In this document: positions 121 to 11,065 of the stretch, piece by piece
Layout: each line of letters begins with the position of its first letter
How positions within the stretch are numbered: position 1 is the stretch's first letter
Origin: Deltaproteobacteria bacterium
GTDB lineage: Bacteria > Campylobacterota_A > Desulfurellia > JAGGSF01
Direction: 5' to 3'
Length of the DNA: 12,906 nt
Assembly (NCBI GenBank): GCA_021159235.1
Contig: JAGGSF010000121.1
Span: forward strand, 1 to 12,906
The notes under the pieces: model-generated
The model's input: the letters and a program-made list of their open reading frames with translations, nothing else
Told to the model about the DNA's origin: nothing
Databases searched by the model: none
Translations under genes and position numbers: made by a program

Positions 121-364
121 TGAAGACGGATTTGGTGAAGAAGAAATGTTTTTAGTACAGGCAGGAAGGTATTATAAGGGATAAATAATTAAGAGATGGT
201 GATGAAAATGGATAAATGCCCAAGGGGTGGAGGGGAAATGAAAATTGACAGAGATGCCTACGTAAGGGATGAGATCATCTTTTAGGGAATGGCTTAAGGA
301 TCCCGGTTTCATATTCTGGCTGGGAGTATTATCGTATCATGGTACGTAGGGTGTGTAGAGTGAT
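121..364 (+). other. Intergenic stretch with two tiny remnant reading frames
   Basis: No complete gene is visible here. Two short overlapping frames can be read. Positions 202-285 give a 27-residue peptide with an upstream purine-rich GAGATGGTG. Positions 269-349 give a 26-residue peptide containing REWLKDPGFIFWLGVLSYHG. The second resembles the first cytoplasmic stretch and start of the first membrane helix of a multi-span membrane protein, for example a PMT/ArnT-like glycosyltransferase, cut off by a TAG at 347-349. This looks like the 5' scrap of a lost membrane gene, but it is too short to name. An AT-rich GATAAATAAT around 180-189 could be a TATA element. Confidence 0.35.
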
Positions 365-1189
365 ATGGGGAAAGAAACTTCGGTTGTGATTTGCAGTTAT
401 GGTGGTAATGAACATTTAGTTAAGCGGTGCATATATGCTTTAGAGCATCAAACACGTCTTCCTGATGAGATATTATTGGTGGTTGACACGGAACAAGAAA
501 TGGAGATGTACACTGAATTACTTAACGGGGGAGTAAAAGTTGTTTATTCAGGTAAGAAAGGTTTAGCAGCGGCGAGAAACAAGGGAATAGAAGAATCTGA
601 AGGTGAAATAGTAGCGTTTATAGATGATGATGCAGTAGCAGATGAAAACTGGCTATACGAGATAGTAAAATCCTTCTCGGGCTCTAGCGATGCAGCGGTA
701 GTTGGTGGACCAGTAAAACCGATTTTTAGAGGTAAGAAAATAAAGGAGAAACTAAACTGGATAATAGGCTGCACAAGCAATAATCCACCGACTGAACGAC
801 CTATTGGTTGCAATATGGCGTTTGATAAAAGAGTATTCAATACGATGGGAGGATTTAATGAGAATTTAGGAAGAGTAAAGGAGAAATTAGCCATAGGAGA
901 GGAGACGGAACTGTTTCTGAGAATTAAGAAATATATGCCAGATGCGAAAATAGTATTCAATCCAGATGCTATTGTATATCACGAAGTGCCAGCCCGAAGG
1001 ACGAAATTGGGTTATATGTTGAGAAGAGCGTATGAGGAGGGGTTAGCAAAAGCAGTTATTGGAAAGAAGTACGGTTTAGATACAGAGCAGAACTATCTCA
1101 AGTATTATCTGAAACATTTAGATTTTGTGACATTTATGGTATTACTATCTGCGGTATTTGGTTATATTAGAGGTAAGCTCAGGAGGTGA
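365..1189 (+). CDS. Family 2 (GT-A fold) glycosyltransferase
   Basis: A 274-residue protein expected to transfer a sugar from a nucleotide-sugar donor to a growing glycan at the cytoplasmic face of the membrane. The N-terminus has the GT-A signature SVVICSYGGNEHLVKRCIYA, with an LVVD strand end at 38-41, a GLAAARNKGI loop at 66-75, and the metal-binding DDD at 87-89 (FIDDDA). An acidic IGEETELFLR stretch near 177-186 fits the catalytic-base helix, and His206 (VYHE) is placed like the distal metal ligand. The last 25 residues are hydrophobic (about 253-268) and end in basic residues, so the protein is probably membrane-associated. Start: ATG 365, preceded by AGAGTGAT. The stop lies inside the ribosome binding site of the next gene, so the two form an operon. 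Donor and acceptor cannot be read from sequence. Confidence 0.9.
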   Translation: MGKETSVVICSYGGNEHLVKRCIYALEHQTRLPDEILLVVDTEQEMEMYTELLNGGVKVVYSGKKGLAAARNKGIEESEGEIVAFIDDDAVADENWLYEIVKSFSGSSDAAVVGGPVKPIFRGKKIKEKLNWIIGCTSNNPPTERPIGCNMAFDKRVFNTMGGFNENLGRVKEKLAIGEETELFLRIKKYMPDAKIVFNPDAIVYHEVPARRTKLGYMLRRAYEEGLAKAVIGKKYGLDTEQNYLKYYLKHLDFVTFMVLLSAVFGYIRGKLRR

Positions 1190-1190
1190 T
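1181..1190 (+). promoter_or_regulatory. Strong Shine-Dalgarno site for the GT4 gene at 1193
   Basis: AGGAGGTGAT is a near-perfect match to the expected complement of the archaeal 16S rRNA 3' end. It overlaps the stop codon of the preceding glycosyltransferase and lies 2 nt before ATG 1193. This fixes that start and couples the two genes. Confidence 0.85.
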
Positions 1191-1192
1191 AA

Positions 1193-2263
1193 ATGAAAAT
1201 AGCACAGATATGCCACAGGTATTATCCAAATAGAGGCGGGGTGGAGAATCATGTGAAGGAGATAAGCGAGAGGTTAGCTAAGAAATTTCATGTAGAGGTT
1301 ATAAGTGCCGATCTATCTTCGGATAATTCTCATAACGAAGAAATAAATGGGGTTAAGGTAAAAAGATTTAGTTCAATCGCTCCCAACGATGCTTACTTCT
1401 TTTCGCCACAGATTTTGTTTTATCTAAGAAAGTCTGATTTTGATATTATACACGCACATAATTATCACGCTTTTCCGGCTTTATTTGCGTCTTTAGTTAA
1501 AGGTAGAAAGTTCGTTTTTACACCACATTATCATGGAATTGGCAGCACTGCTTTTCGTGATTTCCTGAATAGATCTTACAAATTGCTTGGCTCAAAAATA
1601 TTTGAGAGAGCGGATAAGATAATATGCGTTTCGGAGTTTGAGAAAGAACTGATAATAAGGAATTTCGGAATTTTGGAGGATAAAATGGTAGTTATTCCCA
1701 ATGGTGTTGCTCTCAAGGAAATAAAGGAAGCAAAACCTTTTGGTTTTGATGCTGATTTGGTTTTATACGTTGGAAGATTAGAGAAGTATAAAAATATTCA
1801 TTTGGTGATAAAAGCGATGGAGTTTTTACCAGAGTGTTATTTTTATATCATAGGAGCAGCGGGGAATTATAAGAATGAATTAGGAAAGCTCATTCACAAG
1901 CTGAATTTAGAGAACAGGGTAAAAATACTAAGTGATGTTTCAGATGAAGAAAAATACAGATGGCTGAAGACCTGTTCGCTGTTTATCAATTTGTCAGGCA
2001 TCGAAGCGTTTGGAATGACGGTGTTAGAAGCATTAGCGGCGGGGAAGCCTGTGATTGTGAACGACAAAGGGGGATTAAGAGAGATTGCAGAGAAATTTCA
2101 CGATGCTGTTATTTCTATACATGCGGAGAGCATATCTGCGGAAAGATTGGCATCACTCATCGAGAAAGCCATAGGAAAAGTTGCGAAAATTGATGTTAGT
2201 GAATACAATTGGGAGTGTGTAGTTGATAAAATTGAGAATATCTATGAAAAGGTGAGCATATGA
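1193..2263 (+). CDS. GT4 family (GT-B fold) glycosyltransferase
   Basis: A 356-residue retaining glycosyltransferase of the GT4 class. The N-terminal Rossmann domain starts with MKIAQICHRYYPNRGGVENH, with the donor/acceptor loop GGVENH at 15-20 and a HAHNYHA motif at 87-93. The hinge and C-terminal domain begin near VIPNGV (167-172). LYVGRLEKYKN (191-201) is the usual first strand of the donor-binding domain. The EX7E motif is intact: Glu271 and Glu279 in GIEAFGMTVLEA, followed by LAAGKPVIVNDKGGL. Length is normal for the family. It shares a 4-base ATGA overlap with the membrane glycosyltransferase at 2260, indicating translational coupling. A short, clearly related piece of a GT4 C-terminal domain sits at 4623-4685. 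Sugar specificity cannot be told. Confidence 0.92.
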   Translation: MKIAQICHRYYPNRGGVENHVKEISERLAKKFHVEVISADLSSDNSHNEEINGVKVKRFSSIAPNDAYFFSPQILFYLRKSDFDIIHAHNYHAFPALFASLVKGRKFVFTPHYHGIGSTAFRDFLNRSYKLLGSKIFERADKIICVSEFEKELIIRNFGILEDKMVVIPNGVALKEIKEAKPFGFDADLVLYVGRLEKYKNIHLVIKAMEFLPECYFYIIGAAGNYKNELGKLIHKLNLENRVKILSDVSDEEKYRWLKTCSLFINLSGIEAFGMTVLEALAAGKPVIVNDKGGLREIAEKFHDAVISIHAESISAERLASLIEKAIGKVAKIDVSEYNWECVVDKIENIYEKVSI

Positions 2264-3951
2264 AATTGGTATCTGGGGACAAAATAAGAGAGTATGCGAA
2301 TAAGATAAGCATTTCACCTATCATGATCATCGGGATTTGCGTGTTTTTCGCAGTATTCCTCTCAACAGCCATATTTATCATTGAGGATAAAAAGCCTCAG
2401 GCATGGGATCAGGCATTGCACATGACATGCTCTTTCCTCTATTATCAGCTCACAAGAGCATTTAATTTTGGGGATTTTGTGAAAGTTAGCAACTATTACC
2501 CTCCTTTTTTCCACCTCTGCTCCGTCCCGCTTTATTTCTTGTTCGGTTTTTCAGAGGATGTTGCTATTGCGACAAATTTAATCTTCTACGCTGTTCTCGT
2601 CTTCTCTGTGTTCAAAATTGGCGAACATTTCGGAGATAAAGAGACAGGCATTCTCGCGGCAATCCTTGTATCTTTCTATCCACTCTTACTAATACTTCAG
2701 CGTGAATATATGCTGGACTTCGCACTTACGGCGATGTGCGCGCTCGCTTTGCTCCTCCTCTTGAAATCAGATTGCTTTAGAAAACCTCTCATAACTGCTC
2801 TTTTTGGCATAACATTCGGTCTCTGTGAACTCACGAAATGGTCAGCTTTTGTTTTCATCTTGCCTGCGATATTTGCGATATTTATGATTGAATTTGGAAA
2901 GATTAGGAGTGTTTGTGCGCAATGCGGTAAAAAGCTCGGCGAGAAAATTTTCGTTGAGGGTTTATATAGATTCTGTTCAAAGCGATGTGCGAAGATTTTT
3001 GCTGAAAATCCGAGACCGATTGTATCAATTATATCAAGCACGCAAATCACGAATATTATCATCGCTCTCGCACTCGCAATTGTCGTCCTTGGATGGTGGT
3101 ATATTCCGAATTGGGAAGAAGTGAGCATACGCTTAAAATACTTCTCTACGATAAGAGGTGTCAGTGAGAGAGACCCTACAATATTTACGCTTGAAGGCTG
3201 GCTTTACTACATAAAGGCGCTGGATGTGAGCATGGGGCTCTTATTTTTCGTGCTTGCCCTGTTTTCACTAATCTTCTTACTGCAGAGGAAAGATAAAAGA
3301 GCAGTGTTCTTTTTCATTTCCGTTATCATACCATACCTTATATTAACCGCAATGAGTAATAAAGGTGATAGATATATCTTGCCAGTTCTCCCAGTTCTTG
3401 CAGTCTCTACTGCTATCTTTTTGAGAGAGCTTCCTCATGCTTTTCGCAGAGTGGAAGGGAAAAAGTTACAGAGGTTTCTAATGGCAGTGATTCTTTTTGT
3501 GGGCATGATGCAGCTGCTCACGGTCACTGTGGGCTTTCCTAAAATTGAGAATTCCCTGCTTTATCCCAAACCTGTTGCTCCTGATACAGCAGATTGGAAG
3601 ATTGACGAACTTCTTTCTGCGATAAATCAAAATGGTGGCGGCGCGGTTGTCGTTCTTCCAGACCATCCTTACTTGAATGGACAATCATTAAACTTCTATC
3701 GGTTGAAAAATGGCTACAATTTCCCCGTTTTCAACGGCGTTTATATCGGATATGAAACAGTGAAGGCAAATTTTGACAGAATAAAATACTTTGTGCTAAT
3801 CGAGCCAAGGGAGCATGGAAGTGAGGTATTCGGTGGAGAAGAGGCAAGACTATATCAATTATTCTATGAAAGACAGCGGAACTTTGAAAGAATTGCGCAG
3901 TTCTCTCTCCCAGATAATACCTCCCTTCTATTGTATGAGCGTAAAGAATGA
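2260..3951 (+). CDS. Multi-span ArnT/PMT-like membrane glycosyltransferase with an embedded YHS/TRASH-like zinc finger
   Basis: A 563-residue integral membrane protein resembling the GT-C superfamily (PMT/ArnT/GT39-83), which uses lipid-linked sugars on the outer face of the membrane. Hydrophobic segments lie near 19-41, 100-121, 129-148, 152-168, 193-211, 263-281, 322-341, 347-366, 370-388 and 404-424. Asp50 in the first outer loop (AWDQALH) fits the catalytic aspartate, and KGDRYILPVLP (368-378) is the late-helix motif of the family. A soluble C-terminal part covers about 425-563. Unusually, the loop at 212-256 carries CAQC (219-222) and FCSKRC (238-243) followed by FAENP, the layout of a YHS/TRASH metal-binding finger. 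Counting helices places it in the cytoplasm, which is an inference. The start overlaps the preceding stop by ATGA. Confidence 0.82.
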   Translation: MKLVSGDKIREYANKISISPIMIIGICVFFAVFLSTAIFIIEDKKPQAWDQALHMTCSFLYYQLTRAFNFGDFVKVSNYYPPFFHLCSVPLYFLFGFSEDVAIATNLIFYAVLVFSVFKIGEHFGDKETGILAAILVSFYPLLLILQREYMLDFALTAMCALALLLLLKSDCFRKPLITALFGITFGLCELTKWSAFVFILPAIFAIFMIEFGKIRSVCAQCGKKLGEKIFVEGLYRFCSKRCAKIFAENPRPIVSIISSTQITNIIIALALAIVVLGWWYIPNWEEVSIRLKYFSTIRGVSERDPTIFTLEGWLYYIKALDVSMGLLFFVLALFSLIFLLQRKDKRAVFFFISVIIPYLILTAMSNKGDRYILPVLPVLAVSTAIFLRELPHAFRRVEGKKLQRFLMAVILFVGMMQLLTVTVGFPKIENSLLYPKPVAPDTADWKIDELLSAINQNGGGAVVVLPDHPYLNGQSLNFYRLKNGYNFPVFNGVYIGYETVKANFDRIKYFVLIEPREHGSEVFGGEEARLYQLFYERQRNFERIAQFSLPDNTSLLLYERKE

Positions 3952-3980
3952 AGTTTTCCGTTAAATGAGAGGATAAGGGA

Positions 3981-4376
3981 ATGGAAAATAAGATGAGGAG
4001 CAAAATTGATGTTAGGGATATAGAGAAGGTATTAAAAGGATTTAAAGAGATAGAATTTGCTTACTGCTTCGGTTCTTTCCTCGATAAAGAAACGTTTAAT
4101 GACATAGATATAATCGGTCCATACGAGGGTTTGAAGCTCTCTTTAAAGGTGGGGAGGGAGTTGGAAAGGGTGATAAAGCCGAGAAAGAGGATAGATGTGA
4201 AGATTCTTACTCACGCACCAATAGCACTTCAATATGAGGTTATAAAAAAGGGTGAAGTTATTTTTTCTAAGAATGATACGATGCGAAAGAGGTATGAGGC
4301 AGAGGTGCTCTCAAGTTATTTGGATTATAAAGCAACATCGGATTGGTTAGATAGGAAATTTCTTGCGAAGGTGTGA
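3981..4376 (+). CDS. mntA: MntA-like minimal nucleotidyltransferase (antitoxin of an MNT/HEPN pair)
   Basis: A 131-residue protein of the DNA polymerase beta-like minimal nucleotidyltransferase family. In characterised pairs of this family the enzyme adds AMP units to the HepT toxin and so silences it. The active site is complete: CFGSF at 29-33, then DIDI with Asp41 and Asp43, and a third carboxylate at Asp72 in RIDVKIL. The ATG at 3981 is preceded by GAGGATAAGGGA; a second ATG four codons later is an alternative. The remains of its HepT partner begin 3 nt after the stop, so this was a normal two-gene module. With the toxin destroyed, the enzyme is left without its expected local target. Confidence 0.85.
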   Translation: MENKMRSKIDVRDIEKVLKGFKEIEFAYCFGSFLDKETFNDIDIIGPYEGLKLSLKVGRELERVIKPRKRIDVKILTHAPIALQYEVIKKGEVIFSKNDTMRKRYEAEVLSSYLDYKATSDWLDRKFLAKV

Positions 4377-4379
4377 TAT

Positions 4380-4591
4380 ATGTTTGATGAGAGGGGCATA
4401 CTGGACCATCTAAGGGAGCTGAATGAATCACTGAAAGATTGGAAGAGGTATCAATCCATCTCACTCGAGGAGTTGCGTGCTGACAGGGACAAGAGGAACA
4501 TGGTGCTCCATGCCCTGCTCATAAACATTTTGCTGTGTTGAAGGAATTTAAGAGGATTGTGAAGAGATTGTTACAAGAGGAAATAGAATAA
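4380..4591 (+). pseudogene. hepT: HepT-like HEPN toxin gene with an internal deletion
   Basis: The ATG at 4380 starts a typical HepT (DUF86) N-terminus, FDERGILDHLRELNESLKD, continuing to LEELRADRDKRN and MVLHALLI, then stops at 4539-4541 after 53 residues. Immediately after, in another frame, positions from about 4524 to 4591 encode HFAVLKEFKRIVKRLLQE, the usual last helix of HepT. The two halves belong to one family but the middle is missing. HepT proteins are normally about 130-145 residues, so roughly 60-70 residues, including the RX4-6H ribonuclease motif, were lost, and the join is out of frame. The gene cannot make an active RNase. Its antitoxin at 3981 is intact. Confidence 0.8.
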
Positions 4592-4622
4592 CCGTGGCTT
4601 TGAACCATTGGAGGGTGAGATT

Positions 4623-4685
4623 TTTGGGATGACCGTGTTGGAGGCTTTAGCGGCGGGGAAGCCTGTGATCGTGGACGACAAAGGG
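4623..4685 (+). pseudogene. Orphan scrap of a GT4 glycosyltransferase C-terminal domain
   Basis: Twenty-one codons read FGMTVLEALAAGKPV and continue through a VDDKG end. This is the EX7E/donor-site region of a GT4 enzyme and matches residues 273-293 of the GT4 gene at 1193, both as protein and closely as DNA (similar codons, including GCGGCGGGGAAGCCTGTGAT). There is no full domain on either side: the frame runs into a stop at about 4716, overlapping the protease pseudogene that starts at 4697. It is a relic of a third or duplicated GT4 gene, left between two other broken genes. Confidence 0.7.
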
Positions 4686-4696
4686 TGTGCGATGAA

Positions 4697-5051
4697 ATGG
4701 GATTTACACACGTAAAAATATCGGTTCAAAATCCTGCAAGAAGGGAGAGGGGGAGGGAAGTTGAATTGCTCATAGATACCGGTGCTGTGATCTCGGTCAT
4801 TCCTAAGGAGAAAGGAAATCGGAATACGTGCTATTGGTAAGAGAAAGTTTAGGGTTTTTGGTGGTGAACTAATTGAGAGAGAGGTTGGTGTGGTCATCAT
4901 GGAATACGAAGATACTTGCGCTGGAGTTACTGTCGCTTTCGGTGAGGAGGGTGATACACCAATCTTAGGAGTAACTGCCTTGGAGACCCTTGGATACCAA
5001 GTAGATCCGGTAACGAAGAAGCTTAAGAAAGTAGAGCTTTTGATAGTATGA
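4697..5051 (+). pseudogene. Retropepsin-like (clan AA) aspartic protease gene, frameshifted
   Basis: Positions 4697-4840 encode 47 residues with the aspartic protease active-site motif LLIDTGAVISVIP, then hit a TAA. From about 4815 a different frame continues the same kind of protein: GIRAIGKRKF, a GGELIEREVGVVIMEYE strand region, GEEGDTPILGVTALETLG and a VDP end, stopping at 5049-5051. Single-domain archaeal proteins of this type are about 115-120 residues with one DTGA and one hydrophobic-GVTALE flap/psi-loop motif, and the composite has both. The junction (4809-4816) carries the frame change and perhaps a loss of a few codons. The cellular role of this family is poorly known. The stop overlaps the next gene's ATG as ATGA. 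Confidence 0.72.
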
Positions 5052-5260
5052 CCTCCGATATTATATCAAAGTGTTGGAAGGGCGTTATGATTGCAATTGG
5101 AGTAATTATGCTTATAGCTTCATTTTATTTCTCATGGTCATCATGGAAATCTGCTAACTCTTTTGCTGAAAAAGACCATACACTTATAGCGGTAAAAATT
5201 TTATTTTTGCTTTTTATGATAGGAATTGGCACATATTTAACCGGAAAGGAGTGGAATTAG
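5048..5260 (+). CDS. Small two-helix membrane protein, function unknown
   Basis: A 70-residue protein with two clear hydrophobic helices, about residues 13-31 (GVMIAIGVIMLIASFYFSW) and 47-64 (ILFLLFMIGIGTYLTG), joined by a short polar loop. I do not recognise the family. Its ATG overlaps the stop of the broken aspartic protease gene (ATGA), and it lies just before a second membrane protein gene with close spacing, so the two may form a membrane pair. Nothing in the sequence points to an enzyme activity. Confidence 0.6.
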   Translation: MTSDIISKCWKGVMIAIGVIMLIASFYFSWSSWKSANSFAEKDHTLIAVKILFLLFMIGIGTYLTGKEWN

Positions 5261-5292
5261 CATTAGAAATAATGAAAATAGAAAGGGGGCAA

Positions 5293-5946
5293 ATGAAAAA
5301 GCAAGAGAAGGGAGAAAGGAAGAATCGGCAGAAGAACAGGCAAGAAGAAATGATAAGGAGTATTTATGAGGAGAATTGGGAGCACATGAGGCATATTGAG
5401 ACTGAAAGATACTGGTTTCTTAATGTGTATGCACTGGTATTAGGTGCCATCGTTTCAGGAATACTTATGAGCGACAAGAGCTGGGAGGAATTCCTTCCTT
5501 ACATCCTTCTTTTTTTGTTCTTCTTCTCTTTGATTTGGTCTTTTATGACACTGAAACTAAATATAGAGTATTCCAGAATTAGAAAGCAAAATAAAGCATT
5601 GTTAGAGGAATATTACGACGAATTGCTAGAATATATGCATCTGCCAATAGGCGCAGAAATAAAAGGAAAAACTATCTTTCACCACCTTTTTTCAGTTGGT
5701 AGTTTGGCTTGGATTTTCTATGCCCTTGTTGCTTCTACATCACTTGGATTCCTCTTTTATCTTACATATGCAAATAACCATGTAAAAAATATTTTGGAAA
5801 TCGTCTTATCTCCTTATTTTTACGTCCCGTTCTCTATCACTTTGTTTCTTCTTACTCTTGTGCACGAGTGGTTATGGAAAAAATGGAGATACGTTGGAAC
5901 ACTTCAGAAAAGGGTTTGGTCTGCCGATGGCTCGTGGGAGCCTTAG
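5293..5946 (+). CDS. Four-helix membrane protein with a basic coiled-coil-like N-terminus, function unknown
   Basis: About 217 residues from ATG 5293, which I prefer because AGGGGG lies 3 nt upstream; a GTG at 5251 in the same frame would add 14 residues and overlap the previous gene. The first 25 residues are almost all Lys, Arg, Glu and Gln. Then comes an ENWEHMRHIETERYWFLN segment leading into helices near 41-59, 68-87, 133-157 and 175-192 (numbered from 5293), with a charged cytoplasmic-looking stretch between helices 2 and 3. This layout recalls small SLATT-type or related membrane effectors, but that is only a resemblance. The end (DGSWEP) overlaps the hairpin and duplicated block that lead into the next nucleotidyltransferase gene. 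Confidence 0.6.
   Translation: MKKQEKGERKNRQKNRQEEMIRSIYEENWEHMRHIETERYWFLNVYALVLGAIVSGILMSDKSWEEFLPYILLFLFFFSLIWSFMTLKLNIEYSRIRKQNKALLEEYYDELLEYMHLPIGAEIKGKTIFHHLFSVGSLAWIFYALVASTSLGFLFYLTYANNHVKNILEIVLSPYFYVPFSITLFLLTLVHEWLWKKWRYVGTLQKRVWSADGSWEP
5929..5942 (+). promoter_or_regulatory. Small inverted repeat upstream of the nucleotidyltransferase promoter (copy 1)
   Basis: GGCTC-GTGG-GAGCC forms a perfect 5-bp stem with a 4-base loop, 18 nt before the TTTAAA box. The second copy at 8209 keeps the stem through a paired C:G to T:A change. It also codes for the last residues of the upstream membrane protein. It could be an operator for autoregulation or a transcript hairpin; neither is proven. 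Confidence 0.4.
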
Positions 5947-5960
5947 CCGTAAGATGGAAA

Positions 5961-5983
5961 TTTAAAGGTACAAAAAGGTACAA
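5961..5983 (+). promoter_or_regulatory. TATA box followed by a tandem 10-bp repeat
   Basis: TTTAAA at 5961-5966 would place transcription start near 5990, just ahead of the AGGGTGAT ribosome binding site (5991-5998) and ATG 6003. Overlapping the box is AAAGGTACAA twice in perfect tandem (5964-5973 and 5974-5983), one DNA turn apart, a good layout for a repressor site. The second nucleotidyltransferase copy at 8267 lacks these repeats. Confidence 0.5.
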
Positions 5984-6002
5984 AACCAAGAGGGTGATAT
6001 AT

Positions 6003-6329
6003 ATGGAAATCTCGGAGAGACGCAGGGAAGCCGTGGAAGAATTTGTAAGAAGGGCACTGAGTAGATATGGCGACAGGATAGAGAGCATCATCCTATTCGG
6101 TTCTGTTGCGAGGGGAGAGGCGAAAGAGGATTCCGACATCGATATTTTAGTCGTAACCAAAAAGGAAGACTTCAGGTTGAGGCGTATGCTTATAGAAATA
6201 GCCTTTGATATTCTGCTGGATACGGGAGAGAATATTTCTGTGAAAGCTCTATCAAAAGACGAATTTGAAAGGCGTAAAAACTTTTCATTTTTGAGGAGTG
6301 TTATTTCGGAGGGCATAAGAATTGCCTGA
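6003..6329 (+). CDS. Minimal nucleotidyltransferase (MNT antitoxin), copy 1
   Basis: A 108-residue pol-beta-type nucleotidyltransferase, probably the antitoxin of an MNT/HEPN pair. The active-site helix is IILFGSVARGEAKEDSDIDI, with Gly33-Ser34 and Asp45/Asp47. The position that often carries a third acid reads ISVKALS, so it lacks an Asp there. I choose ATG 6003 because of AGGGTGAT 4 nt upstream and because the second copy at 8267 begins at the same residue; upstream in-frame codons belong to the overlapping membrane gene end. Its toxin partner is reduced to a 22-residue stub at 6322. Residues 1-51 are nearly identical to the copy at 8267, while the C-terminal half differs strongly. Confidence 0.85.
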   Translation: MEISERRREAVEEFVRRALSRYGDRIESIILFGSVARGEAKEDSDIDILVVTKKEDFRLRRMLIEIAFDILLDTGENISVKALSKDEFERRKNFSFLRSVISEGIRIA

Positions 6330-6390
6330 GGAAGGGGAGATTGAGGCACTTATTGAGAGAGCAAAAAGGAGGCTTGATGCGAGGCGATAA
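6322..6390 (+). pseudogene. N-terminal stub of a HEPN toxin gene
   Basis: A TTG at 6322, overlapping the MNT stop, opens 22 codons reading PEEGEIEALIERAKRRLDA and then a stop at 6388-6390. The charged helical start and its place right after an MNT gene fit the first helix of a HEPN-domain toxin. GGAGGG at 6308-6313 could serve as its ribosome binding site. The rest of the domain is gone, replaced by the next nucleotidyltransferase gene, which starts 18 nt later. Confidence 0.5.
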
Positions 6391-6408
6391 GACTTGCGGA
6401 GAAAATCA

Positions 6409-6793
6409 ATGCATTTGCAAGAAAATAAGATAACAACCCTTTTAGAGGAGCTGAGGGGAAAAGGTGTTGAGCCAGAATCTATCATATTATTCGGCTCTTT
6501 TGCGAAAGGGAATTACACTGAGAGTAGCGATATTGATGTATTAATTGTATTGAGGAGCGATATGGATTGGTTTAATAAGCAACTCTTAGTAAGCAGTGCA
6601 GACGCTATTAACACCGGAGGAGTTAGAGATGATGTTTTATGAGAATAATGGATTTATCCTGGATGTTTTAGAGGATGGTATTGTTTTACATGATAATGGA
6701 TATTGGAAAGAGATGAAGGAGGAATTCTTGGATAGGAAGAAATTGGGTGCTATTAAGAGGATAAAAAACGGATGGAAAATAAAAGGTAAATGA
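6409..6793 (+). pseudogene. Second-type nucleotidyltransferase gene, frameshifted
   Basis: From ATG 6409 (GCGGAG 7 nt upstream) the frame encodes MHLQENKITTLLEELRGKG and the nucleotidyltransferase motif IILFGSFAKGNYTESSDIDV, then leaves the family after about 61 residues and stops at 6640-6642. A second frame, opening at about 6593, gives the expected C-terminus: LLTPEELEMM, NNGFILDVLEDGIVLHDNG and a basic end, stopping at 6791-6793. The two parts together give a normal protein of about 125 residues, so a short indel lies near 6590-6600. The sequence differs clearly from the MNT copies at 6003 and 8267, so this is a separate subfamily. Read alone, the first part keeps the catalytic Asp pair but lacks the C-terminal half. 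Confidence 0.65.
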
Positions 6794-6797
6794 TTGA

Positions 6798-6980
6798 TGT
6801 GAGTACACTCACCAAAAAGAGAGAAAAAAATGGGCGACGAAGATACTCGGGAAGGAGGAAAAGAATTTCTTTGAGTGGGAAGTGATTCTGACAGAAATGA
6901 ATAAGTTAAGGGGTGTTGATAAATATAAGCTGGTGTTTCTAAATCGCATAAGGGGAATAAATATAAATCGAGATGGCTAA
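6798..6980 (+). pseudogene. Unrecognised reading frame without a start, probable gene remnant
   Basis: An open frame of 60 codons ends with TAA at 6978-6980. It has no good start codon at its 5' side, only an internal ATG near 6897. The part that looks like protein reads KKWATKILGKEEKNFFEWE, then ILTEMNKLRGVDKYKLVFLN. It is rich in Lys/Glu/Leu with no stop-prone stretch, so it may be the C-terminal part of a former gene. I do not recognise a family. The AT-rich end of this frame contains the probable promoter of the RelB/RelE pair. Confidence 0.3.
6960..6968 (+). promoter_or_regulatory. TATA box of the RelB/RelE-like module
   Basis: AATATAAAT is centred about 39 nt before ATG 7003. Allowing the usual archaeal spacing, transcription would start near 6990, just before the AGGTGAG ribosome binding site at 6992-6998. 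Confidence 0.5.
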
Positions 6981-7002
6981 TAAGTGAATGTAGGTGAGAG
7001 AA

Positions 7003-7224
7003 ATGGAGGTAGAAAAAAAGGAGTATATAAAAGGTGTCGTCGCTTCGGCTGTGTATAGAGATATGGTAAAACTGAGGGAGGAAATGGATGCCATCATTGA
7101 AACTTTGGAGATAATGAGTGATGAGGAGTTGATGGAGGGGATAAGGAGGTCGAAAGAAGATCTAAAAGCTGGGAGATACAAGGAGTTAAAGAGTGTGGAG
7201 GAACTTGATGAAATTTGGGGATGA
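7003..7224 (+). CDS. RelB-like antitoxin of a type II toxin-antitoxin pair
   Basis: A 73-residue, highly charged, mostly helical protein. The C-terminal half (SDEELMEGIRRSKEDLKAGR and the following SVEELDEIWG end) matches the Glu-rich toxin-wrapping tail seen in archaeal RelB-type antitoxins. The N-terminal 35 residues would hold the dimer/DNA-binding part, though I see no clear ribbon-helix-helix signature. ATG 7003 is chosen over GTG 6994 because AGGTGAG ends 4 nt before it. The stop shares ATGA with the toxin gene at 7221. Such pairs usually repress their own promoter. The module is intact. Confidence 0.7.
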   Translation: MEVEKKEYIKGVVASAVYRDMVKLREEMDAIIETLEIMSDEELMEGIRRSKEDLKAGRYKELKSVEELDEIWG

Positions 7225-7466
7225 AAGTAATTTACACCAAGGAATTTGAGGATGACTTGAAGAGAGTGCGGGACAGAGGAATGCAAATGAGAATAAAGAA
7301 GAGCATTCAAAAGATAATGGATAATCCTAGTATTGGAAAACCTTTAAGATACGAACTTTCAGGTCTGAGAAGTCTAAGGATTCCACCTTTCAGAATAATC
7401 TATGAACTTAAAGATGATTTGATAATTTTACACAAGTTTGAGCACAGGAAAAGAGTTTATGAATGA
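7221..7466 (+). CDS. relE: RelE-family mRNA interferase toxin
   Basis: An 81-residue protein of the RelE/ParE superfamily. It has the expected order: MKVIYTKEFEDDLKR start, an amphipathic helix pair to about residue 38, GKPLRYELSGLRSLRI (39-54) and a PFRIIYEL strand (56-63), ending in HKFEHRKRVYE. Arg53, Arg58, His75, Arg76 and Tyr80 sit where RelE-type toxins carry their basic and aromatic catalytic residues. Members cut mRNA on the ribosome, while ParE members poison gyrase; the Arg- and His-rich end favours RelE. ATG 7221 overlaps the antitoxin stop. The stop is 4 nt before a copy of a glycosyltransferase 5' end. This is one of only two fully intact pairs here. Confidence 0.8.
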   Translation: MKVIYTKEFEDDLKRVRDRGMQMRIKKSIQKIMDNPSIGKPLRYELSGLRSLRIPPFRIIYELKDDLIILHKFEHRKRVYE

Positions 7467-7470
7467 ACGA

Positions 7471-7644
7471 GTGAAAATTATACACTGGAATATCTCCAAG
7501 CGATCTCATCCTGTTTATGTATTACGAAAATATGAGGATGCGTTGTTCAGCCATCTAAAGGAGCTAGGGCAAGATTGGGATATAGAGAGGATTTGGCGAA
7601 GTGATGGAAAGATTCTTGGGAGCACCGTCTTCTCATGCCTTTAG
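7471..7644 (+). pseudogene. 5'-end stub of a GT4 glycosyltransferase (duplicate of the gene at 10025)
   Basis: Starting at GTG 7471, 57 codons encode KIIHWNISKRSHPVYVLRKY and onward to GKILGSTVFS, the same as the first 55 residues of the intact GT4 gene at 10025 with few changes. A TAG at 7642-7644 ends it where the intact gene continues with its first Rossmann fold. Bases 7594-7637 are identical to 10148-10191 over 44 positions. The stub follows the RelE stop by 4 nt, and an ATG at 7459 in the same frame overlaps the RelE gene. It cannot form an active enzyme. Confidence 0.88.
7594..7637 (+). repeat. 44-bp exact direct repeat shared with 10148-10191
   Basis: These 44 bases match 10148-10191 with no difference. 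They code for the segment WRSDGKILGSTVFS in both reading frames. Identity without even silent changes, while the flanking parts of the same duplicate differ, suggests recent duplication or local gene conversion. Confidence 0.9.
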
Positions 7645-7694
7645 CAATATTTGAAAAATGACAAGGAAATGGTTTAAAGTGGTTAATTTGGAGA

Positions 7695-7958
7695 ATGAGA
7701 TTAGAAATTATTCCTCTGGCATTGAAGAAGATAAGAAGGCGAAAGATACCGATAGAATGGATTGAAGAGACCGTGAGCAATCCAAATCAAGTGGTTGAAG
7801 GTTATAGGGGGAGAAGGGTTGCACAGAAAGTTTATTATGTGGGAGATAAGAAAATGTTATTAAGGGTGGTGTTGGAAGATAATGATACAGTGGTGACGGC
7901 ATATCTCACATCGCAGGTGAGTAGATACTGGAGGGATGAGCATGAAAATAGAGTATGA
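7695..7958 (+). CDS. DUF4258 family protein, probable toxin of a TA pair
   Basis: An 87-residue protein with the DUF4258 pattern: an N-terminal helix (LALKKIRRRKIPIEWIEETV, residues 8-27), NPNQVVEG, GRRVAQKVYYVG, a hydrophobic MLLRVVLE strand, and a VVTAYLTSQVSRYW end. DUF4258 proteins are RelE-like small domains often paired with DUF2283 proteins, as here: the stop of this gene lies 17 nt inside the DUF2283 gene. The toxin role follows from this pairing and fold class rather than from a measured activity. A TTTAAA at 7673-7678 lies close upstream, but at a spacing short for a leaderless start. Confidence 0.8.
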   Translation: MRLEIIPLALKKIRRRKIPIEWIEETVSNPNQVVEGYRGRRVAQKVYYVGDKKMLLRVVLEDNDTVVTAYLTSQVSRYWRDEHENRV

Positions 7959-8148
7959 TCCGAAGTATGACATAATGAATATAGAGTTTATAGCGGAGGG
8001 GGATATAGCGGAGAGTGTGGAGTTGGAAGACGGCATAATTGTGGATTATGGGGAGGATAAAAAAGTTGTGTCCATTGAGATATTAGACGTTAAGAAGAGA
8101 GTGAGTGAAAAGAAATTAGAGGGTGTAAGTTTCGTGATTCTCAAATGA
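7942..8148 (+). CDS. DUF2283 family protein, probable antitoxin partner
   Basis: A 68-residue protein opening with the DUF2283 signature MKIEYDPKYDIMNIEF, then ESVELEDGIIVDYGEDKKVV and SIEILDV. The domain is a small beta-rich fold common beside DUF4258 genes. ATG 7942 is chosen because GGAGGG (7930-7935) lies 6 nt upstream; the ATG at 7936 is too close to that site. The gene overlaps its neighbour by 17 nt at the start, and its own stop overlaps the ATG of a glycosyltransferase stub (ATGA). The pair is intact. Its regulation is not evident. Confidence 0.85.
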   Translation: MKIEYDPKYDIMNIEFIAEGDIAESVELEDGIIVDYGEDKKVVSIEILDVKKRVSEKKLEGVSFVILK

Positions 8149-8207
8149 AAATAGTCCATTGGAGTATATCTAAAGCGGAGCATCCAATGTATGCACTGCG
8201 AAGGTGA
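8145..8207 (+). pseudogene. Second 5'-end stub of the same GT4 glycosyltransferase
   Basis: ATG 8145 starts 20 codons, MKIVHWSISKAEHPMYALRR, then a TGA. They align without gaps to the first 20 residues of the GT4 gene at 10025. The first 14 bases and a 21-base run (8180-8200 against 10060-10080) are identical. The homology ends abruptly at about 8201, where the duplicated nucleotidyltransferase leader block begins. The start overlaps the DUF2283 stop as ATGA, just as the intact gene's start overlaps the PIN gene's stop. Confidence 0.85.
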
Positions 8208-8208
8208 T

Positions 8209-8222
8209 GGCTTGTGGAAGCC
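8209..8222 (+). promoter_or_regulatory. Small inverted repeat upstream of the nucleotidyltransferase promoter (copy 2)
   Basis: GGCTT-GTGG-AAGCC keeps the 5-bp stem and GTGG loop of the copy at 5929, with the closing pair changed from C:G to T:A. Both copies are followed by CTTAGYCGTAA. The preserved pairing hints at a constrained site, but one covarying pair is weak evidence. Confidence 0.4.
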
Positions 8223-8235
8223 TTAGTCGTAAAAC

Positions 8236-8242
8236 TTTAAAA
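8236..8242 (+). promoter_or_regulatory. TATA box of the second MNT/HEPN module
   Basis: TTTAAAA centred 28 nt before ATG 8267 would put transcription start at or next to the start codon, so this message is probably leaderless. No Shine-Dalgarno site is seen, unlike copy 1 at 6003. Confidence 0.5.
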
Positions 8243-8266
8243 GATGAAAACAAAAAGATGAAGCAC

Positions 8267-8650
8267 ATGAAAATCTCTGAGAGACGCAGGAAAGCCGTGG
8301 AAGAATTTGTAAGAAGGGCACTGGGCAGATATGGTGACAGGATAGATAGTATCATCCTGTTTGGGTCTGTTGCGAGGGGAGAAGCGAAAGAGGATTCTGA
8401 CATTGATATTTTGGTAGTTGGTGATGTGAGCTTAGAAGAATTGGTAGAGGTATCGTTTCCAATATTATTAGAATATGGTGAGCTTATTTCAGCGAAGAGT
8501 ATGAAAAAAGACCGTTTTGATTTCGCAGCAAAGGAAGGACATTCATTTGTAAGAAATGTCTTGAGGGAAGGAGTGGTGTTATATGAAAGAATGGGAGAAG
8601 CATTTGGAGAGGGCGGAAGAGAAGCTGAGGGCGGCAAATCTTTTACTTGA
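8267..8650 (+). CDS. Minimal nucleotidyltransferase (MNT antitoxin), copy 2
   Basis: A 127-residue pol-beta-type nucleotidyltransferase. The motif IILFGSVARGEAKEDSDIDI gives Gly33-Ser34 and Asp45/Asp47; the position that often carries a third acid is ISAKSMK, without Asp, as in copy 1. ATG 8267 matches the start of copy 1; in-frame codons upstream to 8204 belong to the leader. The last 22 residues (from ERMGEAFGEGG on) are translated from the first 68 bases of the HEPN gene in another frame, an unusually long overlap for such a pair. Residues 1-51 match copy 1 in 47 positions, while the C-terminal half is only distantly similar, so one copy is probably a mosaic. Confidence 0.85.
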   Translation: MKISERRRKAVEEFVRRALGRYGDRIDSIILFGSVARGEAKEDSDIDILVVGDVSLEELVEVSFPILLEYGELISAKSMKKDRFDFAAKEGHSFVRNVLREGVVLYERMGEAFGEGGREAEGGKSFT

Positions 8651-8958
8651 GCATGTTTTCCGAAGCCATAAGCGAGGCGTATTATGCAATGTTTCATGCT
8701 GCCAAAGCTTTGCTTGCATTAAGAGGCATCTATCCGAAGACGCATGCTGGTGTTGTTTCGCAGTTCGGATTGCAGTTTGTTACTGAAGGACTTATTGAGG
8801 AATTATATGCGAAGAGTTTGGCAAAAGCGGAAACGAAGCGTGAAGAGGCAGATTATGACATATATTTCGAGCCATCCGAAGAAGAAGCCGAAGCCATTGT
8901 CAAGGATGCGGAGAAGTTTTTAGAGAGGATAAAAAGAGCTTTGGAAGAGTTGAGATGA
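8583..8958 (+). pseudogene. HEPN-domain toxin gene with a frameshift
   Basis: ATG 8583 encodes the usual HEPN start, EWEKHLERAEEKLRAANLLL, but this frame leaves the family after about 24 residues near 8656. A second frame resumes with FSEAISEAYYAMFHAAKALL, then an RGIYPKTH stretch (an R-x6-H arrangement near 8725-8748), GVVSQFGLQF, DIYFEPSEEEAEAIV and a charged last helix, stopping at 8956-8958. The composite is about 126 residues, normal for this family. The change is equivalent to a missing 2 bases. An ATG at 8647 in the second frame could start a truncated 103-residue product lacking helix 1, so residual activity is conceivable. The stop overlaps the next frame by ATGA. Confidence 0.7.
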
Positions 8959-9286
8959 TAGAAGTGAGGGACGTCCTTTTCATACATTCCTTAAACATGC
9001 ATGAAGCGCACAGGATGTTTGCGGAAGCCCTTTACTCCCCTTCGGTCAAAGCCCTTGGGGGAAGATGCTTCGCGGAAGCGATAGAAAGAGATTTTTGGGC
9101 TTGCTTACCCGAAAACTAAAAGTTTTCAGGAGATTTGTAGAAGCATTCAAAAGAGCGAAGGGGTATCCCGATTATCCTGTTTACGTGCTTGAAGGTGGGA
9201 TGCCTATGTTTCCAATCTATTTTAAGAAGAGGAAAAGGAAAGATATAAATTATAAATATCCATATATTCATATTGTTAAGAGGTGA
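8955..9286 (+). pseudogene. Frameshifted N-terminal fragment of a probable glycosyltransferase
   Basis: ATG 8955 overlaps the HEPN stop (ATGA) and opens 54 codons: MIEVRDVLFIHSLNMHEAHR, then FAEALYSPSVKALGG and FAEAIERD, stopping at 9117-9119. At the T-run 9092-9096 the -1 frame takes over smoothly with FLGLLTRKLKVFRRFVEAF and YPDYPVYVLEGGMPMFPIYF, ending at 9284-9286. One extra T would join them. The order (a hydrophobic first strand, a helix, then a YxVYxLEGG strand and a membrane-side loop) resembles the N-terminal domain of a GT4-like enzyme. The naming is tentative because the C-terminal donor domain is missing. The fragment ends in AT-rich sequence forming the next promoter. Confidence 0.5.
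9250..9258 (+). promoter_or_regulatory. TATA box of the UPF0175/PIN module
   Basis: TTATAAATA is centred 40 nt before ATG 9294. The implied transcription start near 9280 sits right before the AGGTGATGAT ribosome binding site at 9281-9290. Confidence 0.55.
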
Positions 9287-9293
9287 TGATAAG

Positions 9294-9566
9294 ATGGAGT
9301 TTGAGACGCTGGAAATAAAAGTTCCGAGGGAGTTGTTAATAGGAATAGAAAAGGATAAATTTGTGGAAGAGATGAAACTTTTCACGGCGATGAAACTGTA
9401 CGAAATGAACGCCTTATCTTTGGGAAAGGCGGCGGAATTGGCGGGGAAAAATAAAGAAGTATTTATGGAAGCGTTATCAGAGCATGGAATAGAGGTGGTA
9501 AGGTATTCAAAAGAGGAACTAAATGATGAGATAAAATTTTTGAAGGGAATAAAAGGGATTAAATGA
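9294..9566 (+). CDS. UPF0175 family antitoxin
   Basis: A 90-residue protein of the UPF0175 family, a small helical, DNA-binding-type antitoxin usually paired with a DUF3368/PIN toxin. The core reads MKLYEMNALSLGKAAELAGK (residues 33-52), followed by FMEALSEHGIEVVRYSKEEL, the usual family end. ATG 9294 has AGGTGATGAT at 9281-9290 and a TATA box ahead of it, so I prefer it to the TTG at 9273. The stop shares ATGA with the PIN gene at 9563. The antitoxin is complete while its toxin gene carries a frameshift. Confidence 0.85.
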   Translation: MEFETLEIKVPRELLIGIEKDKFVEEMKLFTAMKLYEMNALSLGKAAELAGKNKEVFMEALSEHGIEVVRYSKEELNDEIKFLKGIKGIK

Positions 9567-10028
9567 AAATAGTATCTAATTCCTCTCCTTTAATCGCACT
9601 TGCAAAAATTAGGAAGCTGGGTATATTGAGAGAAGAAGTTGTTATCCCAAAGGCGGTTTTTGATGAAATAACCAAATCTAAGAAAGAATATGCGAAGGAA
9701 TTGTATGAATGGGGCAAAGATAGGGTTGCCGAGGTGAAGAACAGCAGTTGAATATTTGGAGATGATAGTGGACAAAGGAGAAGCGGAAATGATTACATTA
9801 GCCGAAGAGATGAACGCAGAAGCTGTGTTAATTGATGACTTAAAAGCAAGAAAAATAGCAAAACTTAGAGGATTAAACGTTATTGGAACGATAGGTGTTC
9901 TGTTAGATGCAAAGGAGAAAGGGGTCATAAAGGAATTGAAGCCATTGTTGGACGAGCTAATAGAAAAGAGAATTAGGATACGCAGAGAACTTTATGACCA
10001 TGCCTTGGAGTTGGCTAACGAAAAATGA
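9563..10028 (+). pseudogene. PIN-domain (DUF3368) toxin gene with a frameshift
   Basis: ATG 9563 encodes the DUF3368 start MKIVSNSSPLIALAKIRKLG, then VVIPKAVFDEI, and stops at 9749-9751. From about 9744 another frame continues the same domain: AVEYLEMIVDKGEAEMITLA with its acidic residues, AVLIDDLKARKIAKLRGLNV carrying further acidic residues, GTIGVLLDAKEKGVI and a helical end, stopping at 10026-10028. The composite is about 154 residues, normal for these predicted metal-dependent RNases. The join needs a +1 shift near 9737-9746. The second half has only a TTG start and lacks the N-terminal strand, so an active product is unlikely. The stop overlaps the intact glycosyltransferase's ATG. Confidence 0.75.
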
Positions 10029-11065
10029 AAATAGTCCACTGGAACATCTCAAAAAAATCGCATCCAATGTATGCACTGCGGAAGTATGAGGATGCGTTAT
10101 TCAGCCATATAAAGGAGCTGAGGCAAGAGTGGGATATAGGAAGAATATGGCGAAGTGATGGAAAGATTCTTGGGAGCACCGTCTTCTCATGGTTTTTCTA
10201 TAAAAGCAACAATGCTGATATAGTGCATGCAACTTCGCAGACCGTAGCTCCTGCCGTTTATTTCAGACTTAAGAAATCAAAGAAATTTATCGTAACTGTG
10301 CATGATTTAGCACCGCTGGTGTATCCTTCCGAAATAACTGATGTTTCAATGAAAATACAGTTCATGCTCACGCCAAGAGCGCTGAAAAAAGCGGACAGGA
10401 TAATAGCAATATCAGAATTTACGAAGGGGGAGATAATGAGATTACTGGGGATAGAGGAGGAAAGAATAAGCGTTGTTTACCAAGGCGTTGACCATAAGAG
10501 ATACAAGCCGATGGACAAGATTGAATGCAAGAGGAAGTTTGGGTTGAATCCGGAGGAGAAACATATATTGGTTGTATCGTCTAACATAGAGCACAAGCGA
10601 ATGGATTTAGCGAAAAAGATATTTAATTATATACGGTCAATAAGAGAAGATGTGAAGATGATAAAGGCGGGGTATGGAGAATTGCTGGAAGGGGACGGGG
10701 TGATAAGCGTGGGATGGGTGCCTGAGGAGCGGATGCCGCTGCTATTCAACGCTGCGGATGTTTTCCTGCACACGAGCGAATACGAGGGCTTCGGCTTGCC
10801 GGTGCTCGAGGCGATGGCGTGCGGCACGCCAGTCGTTGCGTTTAAAAAGGCGAGTATACCCGAAGTATTAGGAAATTGCGGGCGCTTGGTCGAGTCAGGC
10901 GACGGAGAAGGTGTGGTGAAGGCGTTTGTTGATAAAATCCTTGAGATGATGGACAAGGGTAAAGATTGGAGGGCTGTGGAGCGTAGCAAGATGTTTTCTT
11001 GGAGGAAGACGGCTGAGGAGACGATAAAAGTGTATGGAGAGTTGATAAGGGATGAAGGTGCTTAA
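10025..11065 (+). CDS. GT4 family glycosyltransferase, intact member of the duplicated 5'-end set
   Basis: A 346-residue GT4 enzyme. The N-terminal domain runs from MKIVHWNISKKSHPMYALRK to about residue 150, with ADIVHATSQ (64-72), VTVHDLAPLVYP (90-101) and a DRIIAISEFTKGEI helix. The donor domain follows, with an ILVVSSNIEHKR strand-loop (181-192). The EX7E motif is Glu254/Glu262 in EYEGFGLPVLEAMACGTPVV. It begins by ATGA overlap with the PIN pseudogene, so it probably depends on the UPF0175 promoter at 9250. Stubs of its 5' end occur at 7471 and 8145. From about 10660 the bases become visibly richer in G and C than in the first half, hinting at a mosaic origin. The next gene overlaps its end by 14 nt. 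Confidence 0.92.
   Translation: MKIVHWNISKKSHPMYALRKYEDALFSHIKELRQEWDIGRIWRSDGKILGSTVFSWFFYKSNNADIVHATSQTVAPAVYFRLKKSKKFIVTVHDLAPLVYPSEITDVSMKIQFMLTPRALKKADRIIAISEFTKGEIMRLLGIEEERISVVYQGVDHKRYKPMDKIECKRKFGLNPEEKHILVVSSNIEHKRMDLAKKIFNYIRSIREDVKMIKAGYGELLEGDGVISVGWVPEERMPLLFNAADVFLHTSEYEGFGLPVLEAMACGTPVVAFKKASIPEVLGNCGRLVESGDGEGVVKAFVDKILEMMDKGKDWRAVERSKMFSWRKTAEETIKVYGELIRDEGA
10148..10191 (+). repeat. 44-bp exact direct repeat shared with 7594-7637
   Basis: This is the copy inside the intact GT4 gene, covering the codons for WRSDGKILGSTVFS. See the partner at 7594. Confidence 0.9.

What the first reader, a model, noticed from the sequence alone, without database searches (positions are those of the whole stretch)
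7003..10200. Every toxin-antitoxin module in a run of four ends on a glycosyltransferase 5' end
RelB/RelE is followed 4 nt later by a GT4 stub (7471). DUF4258/DUF2283 runs by ATGA into another GT4 stub (8145). MNT/HEPN runs by ATGA into a different glycosyltransferase-like fragment (8955). UPF0175/PIN runs by ATGA into the intact GT4 gene (10025). Three modules have a visible TATA box, so each would supply a promoter and translational coupling to the downstream glycosyltransferase. I infer repeated insertion or exchange of promoter-bearing TA cassettes at glycosyltransferase starts. This would tie sugar-coat variation to TA addiction, or simply protect the locus from loss.
Basis: partly seen in the sequence, partly recalled or inferred. 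Interest (0 to 1): 0.85.

Follow-up and report, generated by a model that had tools for sequence, protein, structure and literature searches.

The report
Toxin-antitoxin scrapyard inside a glycosyltransferase operon
In a small archaeal genome, a variable gap inside a sugar-transferase operon has filled with toxin-antitoxin pairs and leftover gene scraps; the pairs end on sugar-transferase starts because genes in this genome are packed that tightly, so this looks like a known kind of unstable gene island and not a new coupling mechanism.

Summary
The four junctions exist: gaps of +4, -4, -4 and -4 nt at 7466/7471, 8148/8145, 8958/8955 and 10028/10025. Two lead into stubs of the same GT4 gene (166 nt at 84%; 58 nt at 83%) and one into the intact GT4. 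The third "glycosyltransferase-like" fragment could not be identified by any search. Two of the four modules have broken toxins: PIN by a 5-bp deletion against an intact homologue, HEPN by an inferred frameshift.

A 95-96% identical allele (L024, Guaymas MAG contig) shows that the locus varies. Between the same flanks it carries 487 bp with a different DUF4258/DUF2283 module where the window has 4.74 kb, and a different TA abuts the same third fragment. TA turnover is therefore real.

The claimed special link to glycosyltransferase starts is not supported. About 73% of co-directional neighbours elsewhere in this genome overlap. In related genomes 0 of 13 readable TA modules of these families precede a glycosyltransferase. 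Such modules are joined equally tightly to DctQ and DUF1156 genes. The stubs diverged from GT4 under strong purifying selection (dN/dS 0.10; P=3e-6), so they are relics of once-working genes.

Best reading: a TA island and gene graveyard in a glycan operon, a known kind.

The parts
365..1189 (+). GT2 glycosyltransferase, left end of the glycan operon
   Evidence: Pfam Glycos_transf_2 E=8.9e-22
1193..2263 (+). intact GT4 glycosyltransferase; source family of the 4617-4688 scrap
   Evidence: Pfam PF00534/PF13439
2260..3951 (+). PMT_2-type membrane glycosyltransferase; conserved left flank of the variable gap
   Evidence: Pfam PF13231; C-terminal 400 codons vs L024 dS 0.074, dN/dS 0.18
3981..4541 (+). 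MNT nucleotidyltransferase and truncated HepT-like partner; L024 homology ends inside MNT at 4237
   Evidence: Pfam Polbeta E=1.4e-15, HepT-like weak; breakpoint
4617..4688 (+). GT4 C-terminal scrap, 89% identical to 2009-2071
   Evidence: dN/dS 0.04
4685..5051 (+). frameshifted retropepsin-like aspartyl protease ORFs
   Evidence: Pfam RVP E=0.0017, below cut-off; two frames
6003..6793 (+). two MNT nucleotidyltransferase genes, the second frameshifted, with partner genes reduced to remnants
   Evidence: Pfam NTP_transf_2; frames; 5926-6154 repeats 8206-8418
6994..7224 (+). small ORF, antitoxin by position only
   Evidence: no credible Pfam or NCBIfam hit
7215..7466 (+). RelE/ParE-superfamily toxin
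   Evidence: Pfam ParE_toxin E=2.1e-12
7471..7638 (+). GT4 stub 1, 5' end only (56 codons)
   Evidence: 84% to 10026-10191; dN/dS 0.10
7695..7958 (+). DUF4258 (toxin-like)
   Evidence: Pfam E=9e-6, over cut-off
7936..8148 (+). DUF2283 (antitoxin-like)
   Evidence: Pfam E=2.5e-14
8145..8201 (+). GT4 stub 2, 5' end only (19 codons)
   Evidence: 83% to GT4 5' end; dN/dS 0.16
8267..8650 (+). MNT nucleotidyltransferase
   Evidence: Pfam Polbeta/NTP_transf_2; weak NCBIfam MntA
8583..8958 (+). HEPN, frameshifted near 8650
   Evidence: Pfam HEPN covers profile 24-116 from the 8647 frame; N-terminus in the 8583 frame
8955..9286 (+). fragment of unknown identity, frameshifted by 1 bp here, open in L024
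   Evidence: 96% to L024; no family
9294..9566 (+). UPF0175 antitoxin
   Evidence: Pfam E=1.1e-18; 8 nonsynonymous, 0 synonymous vs L024
9563..10028 (+). PIN/DUF3368 toxin broken by a 5-bp deletion at 9742
   Evidence: L024 copy intact with DUF3368 E=3.9e-17
10025..11065 (+). intact GT4 glycosyltransferase under purifying selection
   Evidence: Pfam PF00534 E=4.5e-22; 11 synonymous, 0 nonsynonymous vs L024
11052..12161 (+). GT4 glycosyltransferase, overlaps the previous GT4 by 14 nt

Best explanation
The stretch 3951-10025 is a hypervariable gap inside a cell-surface glycan operon of a compact archaeal genome. Small TA pairs and glycosyltransferase alleles have repeatedly been gained there, partly overwritten and truncated. 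What remains is a chain of TA modules and gene scraps between working glycosyltransferases. Each TA ends on the next gene's start because deletion pressure in this genome closes spacers until neighbours overlap, whatever the downstream gene is. GT4 stubs follow two modules because diverged copies of GT4 once worked at this place and lost their 3' parts. The intact GT4 (10025) is kept by selection; the UPF0175/PIN module in front of it is decaying. Shown: truncation, strain replacement, selection patterns, overlap as the norm, no link to glycosyltransferases elsewhere. Inferred: order of events, illegitimate recombination as the agent, and that the modules act as passengers or weak island stabilisers.
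For: L024 allele: same flanks at 95-96%, 487 bp with another DUF4258/DUF2283 in place of 4.74 kb, left break inside MNT, right break inside the 8955 fragment. Both same-genus genomes lack the locus at DNA level. Stub 1 vs GT4 dN/dS 0.10 with P=3e-6 and dS 0.78; MNT repeat 0.08; GT4 scrap 0.04: relics of functional homologues older than the strain split. Pseudogenes throughout. Overlap is the genome norm. Same module kinds tightly joined to non-glycosyltransferase genes in G012, G000:C59 and G001. Published precedents: TAS islands in many genomes (PMC2701414); TA pairs inside a long rfb-glycosyltransferase transcript in Synechocystis (PMC4963859).
Against: Three different TA genes meet the GT4 start within 0-4 nt with no trace of a shared upstream gene, which is neater than random breakage alone would give. 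Three of four junctions are the exact 4-nt overlap against 24% expected (P about 0.045). A 44-nt run identical between stub 1 and GT4 (7594-7637) hints at recombination between the copies. Only one other allele was available, from a 3.3 kb contig in a bin with a different taxon label.
Confidence: 0.75

Rival explanations
1. The 5' end of GT4 is a recombination anchor. Circular or linear DNA carrying a TA plus a GT4 5' fragment integrates by crossing over in GT4, each event adding one TA and leaving one GT4 5' stub upstream, so that surface-glycan genes and TA modules are exchanged as units.
For: A Campbell-type event predicts the array TA-stub-TA-stub-TA-GT4. Stubs 1 and 2 are 5' ends of the same gene. 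There is a 44-nt identical run at the 3' end of stub 1. Three unrelated TA genes join the GT4 start.
Against: The stubs are far too diverged from GT4 (dS about 0.8) and too constrained (dN/dS 0.10-0.16) to be by-products of recent integrations. The 8955 fragment is not GT4. L024 shows replacement between breaks inside MNT and inside the 8955 fragment, not at GT4. No GT4 start was found behind a TA of these families elsewhere in 25 genomes.
Confidence: 0.1
2. The TA modules are kept because their promoters and overlapping stops drive expression of the downstream glycosyltransferase, so that glycan synthesis is tied to TA autoregulation.
For: GT4 10025 has ATGA coupling to PIN and no strong Shine-Dalgarno sequence of its own, unlike GT4 1193. 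PIN/UPF0175 persists upstream of GT4 in both strains.
Against: PIN is frameshifted in the window, so ribosomes translating it would stop at 9751 and not at the GT4 start, yet GT4 shows only synonymous change. UPF0175 changed 8 nonsynonymous to 0 synonymous. TATA-like matches are at chance for three of the four modules. Two modules drive only stubs.
Confidence: 0.15
3. Part of the pattern is an assembly artefact, with alleles from different strains joined in one contig and frameshifts from sequencing error.
For: The window is a whole contig of a draft assembly in 122 contigs; frameshifts occur in several genes; L024 is a short contig in a bin with another taxon label.
Against: L024 independently confirms both flanks, the 8955 fragment, UPF0175/PIN and the PIN-GT4 junction. 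A 5-bp deletion and 60-170 nt stubs with constrained divergence are not typical assembly errors.
Confidence: 0.07

Closest known systems
TAS islands (closely spaced toxin-antitoxin operons of different classes), Makarova et al. 2009, PMC2701414
   Same: Several unrelated TA classes side by side, not explained by tandem duplication; the families include MNT-HEPN and COG2886/UPF0175-PIN.
   Different: Here the island lies inside one glycosyltransferase operon and is interleaved with glycosyltransferase scraps; two toxins are already broken.
TA pairs in the ~40 kb rfb-glycosyltransferase island of Synechocystis 6803 (slr1062a-slr1062, ssr1765-ssr1766), Kopfmann et al. 2016, PMC4963859
   Same: TA pairs embedded in long co-transcribed cell-surface modification genes of a strain-variable island.
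   Different: More modules and more decay here; no expression data; archaeal host.
DUF4258-like/DUF2283 module inside a TRAP transporter operon
   Same: Small TA-like pair between two operon genes, with ATGA junctions to DctQ and between the pair.
   Different: Neighbours are transporter genes, which shows that the junction style is not specific to glycosyltransferases.

Membership tests
TAS island (Makarova 2009) | several closely spaced TA pairs of different classes | tested here: met
   RelE/ParE, DUF4258/DUF2283, MNT/HEPN (several) and UPF0175/PIN within about 6 kb
TAS island (Makarova 2009) | excess over the genome-wide expectation | tested here: inconclusive
   Of the PF01909 hits in G000, 3 of 5 lie in this contig, plus the Polbeta-type 3981; the only DUF2283 and UPF0175 hits are here; 1 of 2 HEPN hits. 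No formal test.
Strain-variable genomic island in a surface-glycan cluster | different content between the same flanks in close strains | tested here: met
   L024: 487 bp versus 4.74 kb
Strain-variable genomic island in a surface-glycan cluster | mobility genes or a tRNA integration site | tested here: not met
   No tRNA; no transposase or integrase among the ORFs scanned in Pfam; not every small ORF was scanned
Type II / type VII TA systems | toxin and antitoxin both intact | tested here: not met
   PIN and HEPN frameshifted, HepT truncated; the RelE/ParE and DUF4258/DUF2283 ORFs are intact
Type II / type VII TA systems | toxicity and neutralisation | not testable with these tools
   needs expression experiments
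   0 of 13 readable modules of these families

The most novel reading that the evidence does not exclude
The GT4 5' end serves as a standing recombination anchor at which TA-headed glycosyltransferase alleles are exchanged, so that TA turnover and surface-glycan switching are physically one process.
Probability: 0.07. Interest if true: 0.6.

Novelty: new member of a known kind. Interest (0 to 1): 0.25.

Why it matters
It gives a clear example, with a strain comparison and selection tests, of how small TA pairs and glycosyltransferase alleles accumulate and decay in one operon. It also warns that ATGA coupling of a TA to a neighbour is weak evidence of function in genomes where overlaps are the norm.

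Tried and rejected
Glycosyltransferase identity of the 8955 fragment: no hit in Pfam, NCBIfam, plasmids or viral contigs. PDB matches were to designed proteins without a significant stretch. The one genome hit lies within another gene's coding region and contains a stop. AlphaFold from a single sequence gave pLDDT 54, so no fold search was run. Viral origin of the modules: no relatives in IMG/VR for DUF2283, UPF0175 or the 8955 fragment, and only a 27% GT hit for GT4. tRNA-targeted integration: no tRNA. Recent tandem duplication of GT4 5' ends: rejected by dS about 0.8 with dN/dS 0.10. Gene conversion between GT4 and the stubs as the cause of the strain differences: the 11 differing sites do not consistently favour either copy. 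A first codon comparison of PMT and UPF0175 was in the wrong frame; one search replaces it.
Full report
What is there. The window is a whole 12.9 kb contig (G000:C31) of a 1.13 Mb archaeal draft genome. Its genes read left to right: GT2 (365), GT4 (1193), a PMT-type membrane glycosyltransferase (2260), then about 6 kb of small ORFs, then GT4 (10025) and GT4 (11052). The finding concerns the right half of the 6 kb gap. The four junctions are as stated: RelE/ParE to a GT4 stub with a 4-nt gap, and DUF2283, HEPN and PIN each ending on ATGA at the next start.

Corrections. Two of the three fragments are proven GT4 5' ends (stub 1 166 nt, 84%; stub 2 58 nt, 83%). The one at 8955 found no credible relative in Pfam, NCBIfam, PDB, plasmids, IMG/VR or 386 genomes, so calling it a glycosyltransferase is a guess. 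The PIN gene is broken by 5 bp and the 8955 fragment by 1 bp against L024. The HEPN gene spans two frames. The gap also contains a HepT-truncated MNT pair, a broken aspartyl-protease-like ORF, two more MNT genes with remnants, and a GT4 C-terminal scrap.

A second allele. L024 (QMVO01000285.1, a 3.3 kb contig in a MAG labelled Methanosarcinales B64_G16) matches window 2735-4237 and 8978-10245 at 95-96%. Between these flanks it has 487 bp with a DUF4258-like ORF (frameshifted by my reading; no Pfam hit) and a DUF2283 that is 38% identical to the window's, where the window has 4.74 kb. So the same 8955 fragment carries MNT/HEPN upstream in one strain and DUF4258/DUF2283 in the other. In L024 the left break lies inside MNT and the right break removes the fragment's first codons. 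UPF0175/PIN and the GT4 start are shared. The two same-genus genomes lack the locus at DNA level.

Selection. Stub 1 against GT4: 17 synonymous and 10 nonsynonymous changes, dN/dS 0.10, P=3e-6 against neutrality; stub 2 0.16, P=0.02. The MNT repeat gives 0.08 and the GT4 C-terminal scrap 0.04. These scraps therefore spent most of their divergence as working genes and were cut down later; they are not copies made by a recent insertion. Between the strains the intact GT4 has 11 synonymous and 0 nonsynonymous changes, UPF0175 0 and 8, and the 8955 fragment about 3.5 and 7.5. GT4 is maintained; the module in front of it and the fragment are not visibly constrained.

Is the tight junction special? 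In nine other stretches of this genome, 46 of 63 co-directional neighbours overlap and 15 of 63 by exactly 4 nt (hand count, longest ORFs; the stretches were chosen around glycosyltransferase and MNT/HEPN hits). Glycosyltransferases in the window also overlap each other (2263/2260, 11065/11052). Among modules of the same families elsewhere in this genome and in the other genomes of the phylum, none of 13 with readable downstream sequence leads into a glycosyltransferase. The 13: DUF2283 in L038-L044, L046, L047; UPF0175 in L049; MNT/HEPN or HEPN in L028, L051, L053. Contig-edge cases (L037, L045, L048) and the unclear L050 and L052 were left out. What follows them is DctM, DUF1156, a winged helix protein, LysE, an ABC transporter, a convergent gene or nothing. 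In G012 the pair sits between DctQ and DctM, joined to DctQ by ATGA and to each other by ATGA. In G001:C79 UPF0175/PIN runs by overlaps into DUF4258/DUF2283. The closest outside GT4 (Methanothrix, 62%) follows a GT2-like gene with no TA.

Promoters. A consensus TATA scan upstream of the four modules exceeds chance only for MNT (P=0.01); UPF0175 and DUF4258 give 0.26 and RelB 0.77. GT4 10025 lacks a strong Shine-Dalgarno sequence, so coupling to PIN is plausible, but the frameshift in PIN removes ribosomes from that junction in this strain.

Literature. TA islands of mixed classes are described in many genomes, with preferential incorporation or cassette transfer as suggested causes (PMC2701414). 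TA pairs embedded in a long glycosyltransferase transcript of a strain-variable island are described in Synechocystis (PMC4963859). No paper in the library mentions DUF2283, so DUF4258/DUF2283 remains a TA-like pair by genetic organisation only.

Verdict. The specific claim, TA cassettes aimed at glycosyltransferase starts that tie sugar-coat variation to addiction, is not supported. The locus is best read as a TA island and gene graveyard in a surface-glycan operon. What remains open is why two GT4 5' ends survive exactly behind TA genes; more alleles would settle it.

Noticed in passing
7594-7637 and 10148-10191: Stub 1 and GT4 share a 44-nt identical run at the 3' end of the stub although the first 122 nt carry all 26 mismatches; this hints at recombination between the copies.
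   Followed up: partly
5926-6154 and 8206-8418: Two MNT genes share 81-86% identical 5' halves that break off abruptly after DILV, with the second copy starting right after GT4 stub 2.
   Followed up: partly
L038 (G012:C46) 962-3210, - strand: A DUF4258-like/DUF2283 pair lies inside a TRAP transporter operon between DctQ and DctM with ATGA junctions.
   Followed up: yes
L028 (G000:C59) 245-5790: MNT/HEPN between an SNF2/NOV_C helicase gene and a DUF1156 gene, all overlapping; looks like a defence operon.
   Followed up: partly
L046 (G001:C79) 97-475: Direct repeats of about 89 nt beside a chain of UPF0175/PIN/DUF4258/DUF2283 genes.
   Followed up: no
4685-5051: A retropepsin-like aspartyl protease ORF, frameshifted, among the TA remnants.
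   Followed up: no
8955-9286 and L024:1969-2298: Fragment with no relative found in any searched collection; its identity is unexplained.
   Followed up: partly
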